NCBI GenBank assembly: GCA_030618495.1 | Contig: JAUXDE010000087.1 | Coordinates: 1-7,503, forward strand | DNA length: 7,503 nucleotides | Reading direction: 5' to 3' | Origin: Clostridia bacterium | Lineage (GTDB): Bacteria; UBA6262; WVXT01; JAUXBS01 | In this document: piece by piece, positions 3,843-7,503 of the stretch | Numbering within the stretch: the stretch's first letter is position 1 | Layout of the letters: each line of letters opens with the position of its first letter | Notes under the pieces: generated by a model | What the model was told of the DNA's origin: nothing | Seen by the model: only the letters and a program-made list of their open reading frames with translations | The model's database searches: none | Made by a program: the position numbers and the translations under genes

Positions 3843-3869
3843 AAGACTAATAAGGTCATGTAAGTCATG
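3820..3869 (+). promoter_or_regulatory. iterated AATAAG / GTCATG elements, candidate Rrf2 operator
   Basis: AATAAG occurs at 3822, 3840 and 3849, and GTCATG at 3855 and 3864. All offsets within each set are multiples of nine bases. The array starts inside the promoter spacer and continues past the transcription start to just before the ribosome site, where a repressor would block polymerase. Its AGAATAA at 3820-3826 and the element TATATAATAAGACTAA at 3835-3850 have close counterparts in the nifS promoter. Assignment to Rrf2 is inference. Confidence 0.4.
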
Positions 3870-3881
3870 AAAGGAGAAGCC

Positions 3882-4268
3882 ATGTTCAAGTTATCGCGCG
3901 CGGGAGAATATGCCCTCAGAGGTGTTGTTTATATCGCTTCAAAGAACGTGGATGACGCAGTTCATGTCGCAGAAATCGCGAAGTGCCAGAACGTTCCCGA
4001 ATATTTTCTCGTGAAAGTATTCAGCAGGCTTGTGCGTAACGGGATAATTCATTCAATAAGGGGGAACAAGGGCGGGTTCAGGCTTTCAAAAAAGCCTGAG
4101 AATATATCCGTTTATGATATTATAACTGCCGTGGAGGGCCCCTTGAATTTAAATGACTGTTTTATCTGCAAGAATTCAAGTAAGTGCAAGATGAAACCGG
4201 TATGGGATGAAGCGAAGGAAAAAATGATGGAGGTGTTGAAACAGCACAATATTGCGGATGTTGCATAA
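3882..4268 (+). CDS. Rrf2-family Fe-S-type transcriptional regulator
   Basis: This is a 128-aa member of the Rrf2 family (IscR, NsrR, RirA, CymR). The N-terminal winged helix-turn-helix starts with the typical KLSRAGEYALRGVVYIA (3-19). It continues through a recognition-helix region, VPEYFLVKVFSRLVRNGII (38-56), and the wing, GNKGGFRLSKKPENIS (61-76). Next come the dimer-helix start VYDIITAVEGP and a cysteine cluster at Cys93, Cys96 and Cys102 (C-x2-C-x5-C). IscR has three similarly placed cysteines that hold a [2Fe-2S] cluster, so an Fe-S sensor of iron, oxygen or NO is likely. Cys35 is extra. I chose the ATG at 3882 over the in-frame ATG at 3867 because AAAGGAG lies five bases before it and the family normally begins at this Met-Phe-Lys-Leu-Ser. 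It heads an operon whose other products are cysteine-rich, and it probably represses its own promoter. Confidence 0.93.
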   Translation: MFKLSRAGEYALRGVVYIASKNVDDAVHVAEIAKCQNVPEYFLVKVFSRLVRNGIIHSIRGNKGGFRLSKKPENISVYDIITAVEGPLNLNDCFICKNSSKCKMKPVWDEAKEKMMEVLKQHNIADVA

Positions 4269-5694: not shown

Positions 5695-6858
5695 ATGAAA
5701 CGCGTGTATTTTGACCATAATGCGGCAACACCGGTTCTTCCCGAAGCTCTCCGGGAGATGCAGTTGTACCTTAAAGAGGAGTTCGGCAATCCCTTGAGTC
5801 AGCACGGTTACGGTGAAAAGCCCAGGGAGGCAATAGAAGGGGCGCGGTCCGCTATCGCATCGATGATAGGTTCAAATCCTGATGAGGTGATATTCACTTC
5901 ATGCGGCAGTGAATCCAACAACCTTGCCGTAAAGGGCGCTGCCCTCGCTAATAAAACGAAGGGCAATCATATTATAATTTCCGCTATCGAACATTTCTCA
6001 GTCATTAATTCAGCCAAAGCGCTTGGCAGGATGGGATTTGAGGTTACGCAGGCGCCGGTGGACAAGTACGGTATCGTAGACCCGAAGGAAGTGGAGAAAG
6101 CAATAACCGATAAGACCATACTTGTATCAATAATGCACGCAAACGGAGTGATAGGCGTAATCGAGCCGATTGCAGAAATCGGTAAAATACTGAAGGACAA
6201 GAATATTATTTTTCATACGGATGCCGTACAAACGGCGGGAACGATAAAGACGGACGTTAATGAGCTTGGCGTTGACCTGCTGACACTGGCGGGAAACCAG
6301 TTCTACGGACCTAAGGGGACGGGCGCCCTGTACCTTAGGAAGGGTACGAGGCTCATGCCGTTGATAGACGGGGGTGTGCAGGAGGGGGGTAGAAGGGCAG
6401 GCACTGAAAATGTTTCCGCAGTGATTGGGATGGGTAAAGCGGCGGAGATTGCCGTAAAGGAGATGGATAAAAGGGCAGTGTATTTAAAGAACTTAAGAGA
6501 TAAACTCCAGAAAGGTATCTTAGATTCCGTGCCGGAAGTGATTCTTAACGGTCATCCCGACAGGAGGCTGCCGGGGGTTCTTAACGTATCGGTAAAGTAC
6601 ATAGAAGGGGAATCGATGCTGATGCTTTTAAACATGCAGGGTATTGCCCTCTCAAGCGGTTCCGCATGCACTTCAAAGGCGCTTAAGGCGTCTCACGTTC
6701 ACCTGGCGATAGGACTGAAGCACGAAGAAGCTCACGGTTCACTGTTGTTTTCACTCGGTATTGATAATACGGATGAGGACGTCAATTATCTTATAGAAGT
6801 TTTACCTCCGATAGTGGAGAAGTTAAGAAAGATATCACCAATATATAATAAGGATTAG
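5695..6858 (+). CDS. nifS: NifS/IscS-like cysteine desulfurase homologue lacking the PLP lysine
   Basis: This 387-aa protein is a full-length class V aminotransferase-fold protein of the NifS/IscS group, which normally moves sulfur from cysteine to an Fe-S scaffold using PLP. Recognisable parts are YFDHNAATPV (5-14), GSESNNLA (71-78), the PLP-stacking His100 in AIEHFSV, HTDAVQTAG (174-182) with Asp176 and Gln179, GGRRAGTENV (231-240), and the sulfur-carrying loop SSGSACTS (320-327) with Cys325. The Ser-x-His-Lys motif that supplies the Schiff-base lysine reads LAGNQFYGPKG (198-208), putting Asn201 for His and Gln202 for Lys. The Ser-Ile-Arg-Phe-Ser arginine that binds the substrate carboxylate is Leu351 (GSLLFSLG). 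The frame is otherwise intact, so this is a maintained variant and not decay. The ATG at 5695 has only a distant ribosome site (AAGGGG, 15 bases away), with a tiny ATG-GTA-AAT-TAA frame between. A nifU start follows 34 nt later. Canonical desulfurase activity is doubtful. Confidence 0.9.
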   Translation: MKRVYFDHNAATPVLPEALREMQLYLKEEFGNPLSQHGYGEKPREAIEGARSAIASMIGSNPDEVIFTSCGSESNNLAVKGAALANKTKGNHIIISAIEHFSVINSAKALGRMGFEVTQAPVDKYGIVDPKEVEKAITDKTILVSIMHANGVIGVIEPIAEIGKILKDKNIIFHTDAVQTAGTIKTDVNELGVDLLTLAGNQFYGPKGTGALYLRKGTRLMPLIDGGVQEGGRRAGTENVSAVIGMGKAAEIAVKEMDKRAVYLKNLRDKLQKGILDSVPEVILNGHPDRRLPGVLNVSVKYIEGESMLMLLNMQGIALSSGSACTSKALKASHVHLAIGLKHEEAHGSLLFSLGIDNTDEDVNYLIEVLPPIVEKLRKISPIYNKD

Positions 6859-6892: not shown

Positions 6893-6964
6893 ATGCCGCA
6901 ATACAATGAGAAAGTAATGGAATATTTCATGAACCCGAGAAACGTGGGTGAAGTGCCTGCTGCC
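6893..6964 (+). pseudogene. nifU: NifU/IscU scaffold gene, 5' fragment broken by a sequence junction
   Basis: The ATG at 6893 has AAAGGAG six bases upstream and encodes MPQYNEKVMEYFMNPRNVGE, the unmistakable N-terminus of the NifU/IscU Fe-S scaffold. The expected continuation (Asp-Ala-Asp-Gly-x-Gly, then the first cluster cysteine in the Gly-Asn-Pro-x-Cys-Gly-Asp motif) never appears. After about Pro22 the frame runs into unrelated Arg-rich sequence and stops near 7093. None of the three cluster cysteines is present. Spacing to nifS (34 nt) indicates one operon and a cognate pair. The break coincides with a sharp rise in GC, so the gene is probably intact in the real genome and truncated here by misassembly, though a genuine recombination cannot be excluded. 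Confidence 0.8.
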
Positions 6965-6972
6965 GGGCAAAG
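6956..6972. other. sequence junction: moderate-GC genome to GC-rich segment
   Basis: NifU similarity ends at about 6958-6964, and a different protein family begins in another frame by 6966-6975. Upstream codons are mixed to AT-leaning. Downstream, roughly three quarters or more of the 179 codons end in G or C by hand count. I see no insertion-sequence ends, target duplication, tRNA or integrase at the joint, which argues for an assembly chimera over a mobile element. Confidence 0.75.
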
Positions 6973-7503
6973 GGGACGACATCCGTCAGAAGGACATCGA
7001 GACGAGCCTCATCAACTCCTTCCTCTACCCCAAGTTCGGACCGGGCCAGCTATGGAAGGCCGTAGCCGACACCGTCAGCGACCGGGGCGGTGAAATCCGC
7101 CTTGGGCGCAAGGTCACGGGGATTCGCGTCCATCAGGGCCGCGTGGTCGAGGTGACGAGCCGCGGCTCTGACGGCAGCACCGAGTTTCACCCCTGCAGTG
7201 CCTTCTTCTCCACCATGCCCGTTAGCGAGCTCCTTCCCGCCATGGGAAAAGCCGTGCCCGCCGAGGCTGCCGAGGTCGCAACGGGCCTTCGTTTCCGGGA
7301 TTTTGTCTCGGTAGGGCTTCTACTCGACGAGCTCGAGGCGCCCGGCCTCGAGCTCGCTGGCGCACCCACGACGGGCGGTGTCCTGGTTACCGCCACCGTC
7401 ACGGGACACGCAGCCTACACGTTGCGCGAGCTCACCGTGACTGGCCGTTGTCACGGCCGCGTCGCGGTCCATGCCGACATCGACGGTGATGGCGCCCTCG
7501 ATC
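6966..7503 (+). CDS. fragment of FAD-dependent amine-oxidase-like protein, no start and no end
   Basis: The frame through 6966-7502 is open for 179 codons with strongly GC-biased third positions, so it is coding despite having no start codon. The part up to about 7340 resembles the middle of FAD/NAD(P)-dependent amine-oxidase-like proteins (protoporphyrinogen-oxidase or UDP-galactopyranose-mutase-like). It has SLINSFLYPKFGPGQLW (14-30 of the fragment), a Gly-Gly-Glu-Ile strand with GRVVEV, FFSTMPVSELLP, and the typical RFRDFVSVGLLLD. In such proteins this region follows the N-terminal FAD-binding Rossmann motif, which is missing here. After about 7340 the expected Trp/His-Pro continuation is not seen. 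The rest (with GHAAYTLRELTVTGR and ADIDGDGALD near the end) is unfamiliar and could be a divergent tail or a second foreign piece. It is unrelated to the Fe-S operon. Confidence 0.65.
7328..7356. repeat. 12-bp perfect inverted repeat with 5-nt loop
   Basis: CGAGCTCGAGGC (7328-7339) and GCCTCGAGCTCG (7345-7356) are exact reverse complements around GCCCG. The hairpin lies inside the open frame of the flavoprotein fragment, is not followed by a T tract, and so is not a standard terminator. It coincides with the point where similarity to the flavoprotein family fades. Confidence 0.6.

What the first reader, a model, noticed from the sequence alone, without database searches (positions are those of the whole stretch)
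5695..6858. Cysteine desulfurase homologue without PLP lysine or substrate arginine, upstream of nifU
Seen: the Schiff-base position is Gln202 (LAGNQFYGPKG in place of the Ser-x-His-Lys motif), and the Ser-Ile-Arg-Phe-Ser arginine is Leu351, while Cys325, His100, Asp176 and the full frame remain. Known: Archaeoglobus fulgidus IscS also lacks the active-site lysine (Asp there) yet pairs with IscU and contributes a ligand to a [2Fe-2S] cluster. Inference: this protein may be a scaffold partner using free sulfide in a sulfidic anaerobe instead of a desulfurase. Loss of both catalytic residues with an otherwise intact sequence points to a maintained alternative function.
Basis: partly seen in the sequence, partly recalled or inferred. 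Interest (0 to 1): 0.75.

Follow-up and report, generated by a model that had tools for sequence, protein, structure and literature searches.

The report
Lysine-less NifS paired with NifU scaffold
This gene encodes a relative of the enzyme that normally takes sulfur from cysteine to build iron-sulfur clusters; it has lost the residues needed for that reaction but kept the sulfur-handling cysteine and its scaffold partner, and a large family like it in anaerobic bacteria and archaea usually sits beside two sulfur-carrier genes, which suggests iron-sulfur clusters fed by inorganic or protein-carried sulfur.

Summary
In detail: window 5695-6858 encodes an intact 387-aa type-I NifS/IscS with Gln202 (Schiff-base Lys), Asn201 and Leu351 (substrate Arg), while Cys325, His100 and Asp176 stay. 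It is not a one-off. About 70 loci in Chloroflexota, Aminicenantes and other bacteria share GNQFYGPKG and Leu/Val351; Asgard archaea and Archaeoglobus fulgidus IscS carry Asp at the Lys and Gln/Glu/Leu at the Arg. All keep the Cys loop, nearly all (102/105) with a basic residue at Cys+3 that Lys-bearing homologues lack (2/71). The gene is under purifying selection (dN/dS 0.076 against its paralogue). Relatives form a conserved same-strand operon with an IscU that keeps every cluster ligand, usually with TusA and DsrE sulfur carriers (59/71 loci; 5/7 against 1/53 in a wider bacterial sample). In some genomes it is the only desulfurase homologue found. In the window's own genome a canonical NifS exists elsewhere, TusA, DsrE and SufB/D are not found, and the adjacent NifU is the only evident IscU-type scaffold (cut here by a chimeric contig end at ~6958). 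Best reading: a non-desulfurase partner of NifU of the A. fulgidus type. The DsrE-TusA-NifS*-IscU linkage looks unreported; the sulfur route is inferred.

The parts
5695..6858 (+). Lysine-less NifS/IscS homologue (387 aa)
6295..6300 (+). Asn201-Gln202 in place of the His-Lys Schiff-base pair
   Evidence: sequence
6667..6678 (+). Cys325-Thr-Ser-Lys328: retained sulfur cysteine and the basic residue at Cys+3 typical of Lys-less forms
6745..6747 (+). Leu351 in place of the substrate-binding Arg
   Evidence: sequence
6893..6957 (+). First ~21 codons of nifU/iscU (scaffold partner); gene continues intact in the same-genus locus L038 1142-1654
6958..7503 (.). Not part of the system: GC-rich (64-67%) PRK07208-type oxidoreductase fragment, probable chimeric contig end
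4852..5604 (+). 4Fe-4S ferredoxin-domain protein (250 aa) upstream; a similar gene lies near the Lys-less NifS in L073
4608..4850 (+). 80-aa Cys-rich protein, family also near Lys-less NifS in L050, L058, L073
3867..4268 (+). Rrf2-family regulator with Cys98/101/107 (possible Fe-S sensor), heads the gene group

Best explanation
The protein is a non-desulfurase member of the type-I NifS/IscS fold that works as a partner of the NifU/IscU scaffold. Shown by sequence: the Schiff-base Lys and substrate-carboxylate Arg are gone, while the sulfur-carrying Cys on the mobile loop, the glutamates facing IscU, and all cluster ligands of the cognate IscU are kept. Inferred: it cannot take sulfur from cysteine; it docks on NifU as a dimer and offers Cys325 either as an extra ligand for the nascent [2Fe-2S] cluster (shown for A. 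fulgidus IscS) or as an acceptor of sulfur supplied from outside. In most relatives that supply is probably a DsrE -> TusA relay encoded in the same operon. In the window's organism, where neither was found, it would be sulfide or sulfur from the unlinked canonical NifS.
For: Active-site losses with strict Cys retention: Gln group 25/25, Asp group 13/13, others 5/5. Basic residue at Cys+3 in 102/105 Lys-less versus 2/71 Lys-bearing. IscU-facing Glu304 and Glu306 invariant in the Gln, Asp and other Lys-less groups. IscU on the same strand in 100/108 loci, median frame gap -34 nt, all ligands conserved. dN/dS 0.076 against the 85% paralogue. AF2 model pLDDT 92.5 with a low-confidence Cys loop; nearest folds are headed by A. 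fulgidus IscS, which has no desulfurase activity and donates Cys321 to the cluster (PMC7585200; PMC9769115). TusA/DsrE linkage. H2S can feed IscU without IscS in anaerobic E. coli (PMC13015791).
Against: No biochemistry on any bacterial member. His100 and Asp176 are retained, so PLP may still bind and do some chemistry. The window genome holds a canonical NifS that could do the real work, and lacks TusA/DsrE. Most Gln-bearing genomes (33 of 47 by pattern) also carry a canonical desulfurase.
Confidence: 0.65

Rival explanations
1. Sulfur-relay platform: DsrE picks up inorganic sulfur, passes it to TusA, which loads Cys325 of the lysine-less NifS, which hands it to IscU (reverse of the E. coli IscS-to-TusA direction). 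This is a stronger form of the best explanation.
For: TusA/DsrE within 3 kb of 59/71 Lys-less loci, 5/7 vs 1/53 in the wider sample (Fisher p 2e-5), nearly all Asgard loci, always same strand. TusA keeps its CP-motif Cys in 90/90 and a second Cys in 84/90. E. coli TusA Cys19 sits ~4 A from IscS Cys328 (PMC2854127). DsrE of A. vinosum is persulfurated by sulfide (PMC3397948).
Against: No TusA or DsrE_2 found in the window's genome; the orthologous locus L038 runs NifS-NifU-PEP-utilising enzyme without them. Trp45 of the TusA site is not kept and E. coli TusA Arg27/Arg31 are not kept by eye. The phylogenetic sign test has no power.
Confidence: 0.4
2. Pure cluster-ligand co-scaffold using free sulfide, as proposed for A. 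fulgidus IscS; TusA/DsrE serve another pathway.
For: A. fulgidus (IscS-IscU)2 structure with IscS Cys321 as ligand (PMC9769115); window genome lacks TusA, DsrE, SufB/D.
Against: Does not explain the conserved TusA/DsrE operon of most relatives, nor the canonical NifS kept in many genomes.
Confidence: 0.3
3. Pseudo-enzyme that regulates or heterodimerises with the canonical NifS.
For: Canonical copy in the same genome (L001); tandem canonical plus Lys-less copies in several Dehalococcoidia.
Against: About ten genomes with the Lys-less form show no Lys-type desulfurase homologue, including single-contig G061; its constant operon partner is IscU, not the canonical NifS.
Confidence: 0.1
4. Still an enzyme: non-covalent PLP or PMP chemistry on another substrate.
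For: His100, Asp176 and Thr237 are kept in all 25 Gln-group members.
Against: Both Lys and substrate Arg gone; the Asn155 and Gln183 positions are changed in most of the Gln group.
Confidence: 0.12
5. Decaying gene copy.
For: Loss of catalytic residues.
Against: dN/dS 0.076, full frame, same residues fixed across phyla.
Confidence: 0.01

Closest known systems
Archaeoglobus fulgidus IscS2 (PDB 4eb5, 4eb7, 4hvk; Marinoni 2012, Pagnier 2014)
   Same: Lacks Lys (Asp199) and, as seen, the substrate Arg (Leu); keeps the Cys loop with Lys at Cys+3; pairs with IscU; no desulfurase activity
   Different: Archaeal Asp group; the window is in the bacterial Gln group (about 50% identity)
Methanosarcina acetivorans IscS1 (MA0808)
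   Same: Lacks the catalytic Lys; clustered with iscU1 and four genes of unknown function (PMC7585200)
   Different: Uncharacterised; whether its neighbours are TusA/DsrE could not be checked here
MIS system (MisS/MisU, Garcia 2022)
   Same: Minimal NifS-NifU type pair
   Different: MisS is described as a working cysteine desulfurase (PMC12442378, PMC12192291)
SMS (SmsCB)
   Same: Fe-S assembly in anaerobes without a cysteine desulfurase, using sulfide (PMC12192291)
   Different: Unrelated SufBC-type scaffold
E. coli IscS-TusA / IscS-IscU hub
   Same: One Cys loop serves TusA and IscU (PMC2854127)
   Different: PLP-dependent; sulfur flows from IscS to TusA

Membership tests
PLP-dependent type-I cysteine desulfurase (NifS/IscS) | Overall fold and sequence family | tested here: met
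PLP-dependent type-I cysteine desulfurase (NifS/IscS) | Schiff-base lysine | tested here: not met
   Q202. No replacement: GPK207 is shared with canonical forms and position 328 is Arg in most of the Gln group
PLP-dependent type-I cysteine desulfurase (NifS/IscS) | Substrate-carboxylate arginine | tested here: not met
   L351
PLP-dependent type-I cysteine desulfurase (NifS/IscS) | Persulfide cysteine on a mobile loop | tested here: met
   C325; loop 324-328 has pLDDT below 50
PLP-dependent type-I cysteine desulfurase (NifS/IscS) | Cysteine desulfurase activity | not testable with these tools
   needs an enzyme assay
A. fulgidus-type non-desulfurase IscS partner of IscU | No Schiff-base Lys, no substrate Arg, Cys kept | tested here: met
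A. fulgidus-type non-desulfurase IscS partner of IscU | Operon with IscU retaining the cluster ligands | tested here: met
A. fulgidus-type non-desulfurase IscS partner of IscU | Clade with A. fulgidus IscS | tested here: inconclusive
   Sister groups, SH-aLRT 83 (66 without active-site columns); one clade of all Lys-less forms not rejected, p-AU 0.738
A. fulgidus-type non-desulfurase IscS partner of IscU | Cys is a cluster ligand in the complex | not testable with these tools
   needs a structure of the complex

The most novel reading that the evidence does not exclude
A desulfurase-independent Fe-S assembly module, DsrE-TusA-NifS*-IscU, spread over anaerobic bacteria and archaea, in which a former desulfurase serves as a PLP-independent sulfur-receiving platform for IscU; in some genomes it is the only NifS/SufS-type protein.
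Probability: 0.4. Interest if true: 0.85.

Novelty: new variant of a known kind. Interest (0 to 1): 0.68.

Why it matters
Textbook Fe-S assembly takes sulfur from cysteine through a PLP enzyme. A widespread clade that lost that chemistry yet kept its Cys loop, carries a basic residue beside it, and stays in an operon with IscU and usually with sulfur carriers offers a testable answer to how anaerobes make Fe-S clusters from inorganic or carried sulfur. It also warns that NifS/IscS annotations in many MAGs do not imply cysteine desulfurase activity.

Tried and rejected
(1) Compensating lysine: GPK207G also occurs in canonical forms, and position 328 is Arg in 19 of 25 Gln-group members, so neither replaces K202. 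(2) Pseudogene: rejected by dN/dS 0.076 and cross-phylum fixation. (3) Independent losses: the first tree put the HTR form (L180, L185) apart, but with active-site columns dropped a single clade is not rejected (p-AU 0.738), so convergence is not claimed; L196 (NGT) and L206 (ERR) are long branches and were left out of that test. (4) Phylogenetically independent sign test for TusA/DsrE linkage: 1-3 pairs only, no power. (5) TusA docking-site conservation: mixed. (6) The Nfu profile drifted onto IscU in my iterative search and was ignored. (8) A first paper search for MIS returned mostly noise, and Garcia 2022 is not held. (9) A plasmid search for the origin of the contig tail found nothing.

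Full report
OBSERVATION. The ORF at 5695-6858 (+) is intact and codes for 387 aa. It belongs to the type-I NifS/IscS family over its full length. Aligned to E. coli IscS, the Schiff-base Lys206 is Gln202, His205 is Asn201, Ser203 is Ala199, Asn155 is Gly151 and the substrate Arg354 is Leu351; His104, Asp180, Gln183, Thr243 and Cys328 are kept as His100, Asp176, Gln179, Thr237 and Cys325.

WINDOW ANATOMY. The window is a whole contig (C30) of a 1.69 Mb MAG, 98% complete. Upstream on the same strand lie an Rrf2 regulator, a 99-aa protein, an 80-aa Cys-rich protein and a 4Fe-4S protein, then a 90-bp gap before the NifS gene. nifU starts at 6893. At about 6958 the sequence leaves the nifU of the same-genus genome (L038) and turns into GC-rich DNA coding for a PRK07208-type oxidoreductase piece: a probable chimeric contig end. 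In L038 nifU is complete, with the C, D, C, K, H and C ligands and a C-terminal Cys-rich tail.

NOT A SINGLETON. A search of 84,980 species genomes gave 80 loci; most carry GNQFYGPKG with Leu or Val at the Arg position, in Chloroflexota (Dehalococcoidia), Aminicenantes and bins labelled Deltaproteobacteria. The search used GNQFYGPK as one of its patterns, so these counts are not frequencies. A second sample, 60 type-I homologues taken from the top matches in genomes scattered over Bacteria (DNA), contained seven without Lys (QQL, QTL, HRL, HTR twice, NGT, ERR). It is ranked by similarity to the query, so it is wider but not random. Thirty Asgard loci all have Asp at the Lys and Gln or Glu at the Arg. 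A. fulgidus IscS has Asp and Leu there.

WHAT IS KEPT. In non-redundant sets the Cys is invariant in all groups. A Lys or Arg three residues after it is present in 102 of 105 Lys-less and 2 of 71 Lys-bearing sequences. IscU-facing Glu304/Glu306 (E. coli 309/311) are invariant in Lys-less forms. Cognate IscU proteins keep the ligands. dN/dS between the window copy and its 85% paralogue (L039) is 0.076.

NEIGHBOURS. The usual order is NifS*-IscU-(zinc ribbon)-DsrE-TusA (Pfam NifU_N, DrsE_2 and TusA confirmed). Among 71 Lys-less loci 59 have TusA or DsrE within 3 kb, versus 2 of 17 Lys-bearing ones, both of these lying beside a Lys-less copy. In the 60-locus sample it is 5 of 7 versus 1 of 53 (Fisher p 2e-5), and among IscU-linked loci 5 of 6 versus 0 of 17. 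All partners found are on the same strand. These tests do not correct for shared ancestry; conserved synteny across two domains is the stronger argument.

TREE. The Gln-type (SH-aLRT 97) and Asp-type (95 with one long branch) groups are sisters with support 83, or 66 when active-site columns are left out. One clade of all 41 Lys-less rows is not rejected (p-AU 0.738). A single ancient origin is plausible but not shown.

GENOME CONTEXT. Of 200 genomes related to G061, 47 carry the Gln motif; 33 of them also match a canonical Lys motif. For the other 14, a PF00266 search left about ten with only a weak, alanine-glyoxylate-type aminotransferase match besides the Gln form, including the single-contig G061, where that second match was read and is of this kind. 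MAG incompleteness may explain part of this. The window's own genome has a canonical NifS (C123, not beside nifU), no TusA, no DsrE_2 and no SufB/D, and no other full IscU-type scaffold. In G001 the orthologous locus also lacks DsrE/TusA, whereas the paralogous locus L039 has them. So the relay is not universal and is not supported for this copy.

MECHANISM. A. fulgidus IscS has no desulfurase activity and gives a Cys ligand to the [2Fe-2S] cluster on IscU (PMC7585200; PMC9769115). The window protein's model is closest to it. I therefore take it as a non-desulfurase partner of NifU. For relatives with TusA/DsrE I infer sulfur delivery through Cys325; E. coli TusA places its Cys ~4 A from the IscS Cys (PMC2854127), and a DsrE can be persulfurated by sulfide (PMC3397948). 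Each transfer step is inferred.

NOVELTY. Lysine-less IscS is known from A. fulgidus and noted in M. acetivorans. In the open-access papers I could search I found no report of the bacterial clade, the Cys+3 basic residue or the TusA/DsrE operon. Subscription literature, including Garcia 2022, could not be read.

Noticed in passing
window 6958-7503: Chimeric contig end: GC jumps from about 45% to 64-67% and nifU switches to a PRK07208-type oxidoreductase fragment.
   Followed up: partly
L039 3532-7749: The same-genus genome carries a second Lys-less NifS locus with NifU, DsrE, TusA and a PEP-utilising enzyme; the window-type locus (L038) has the PEP-utilising enzyme but no DsrE/TusA.
   Followed up: partly
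L180 2362-4851, L185 2358-4610: Divergent Lys-less form (His100->Asp, Lys->Thr, Arg kept) in the window's order, in a TusA-DsrE-NifS-IscU operon where IscU has a C-terminal extension; its loop STGSACFS matches that printed for M. acetivorans IscS1.
   Followed up: partly
L086 3709-7000 and other Aminicenantes loci: Nfu-domain protein, Lys-less NifS, IscU with zinc-ribbon tail, TusA and NadA in one run of genes.
   Followed up: no
window 3867-4268: Rrf2 regulator with Cys98, Cys101, Cys107, a possible Fe-S sensor of this gene group.
   Followed up: no
L206 3035-4255 and L196 3007-4224: Two further NifS homologues without Lys (Glu-Arg-Arg and Asn-Gly-Thr states) on very long branches, not linked to TusA/DsrE.
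   Followed up: no
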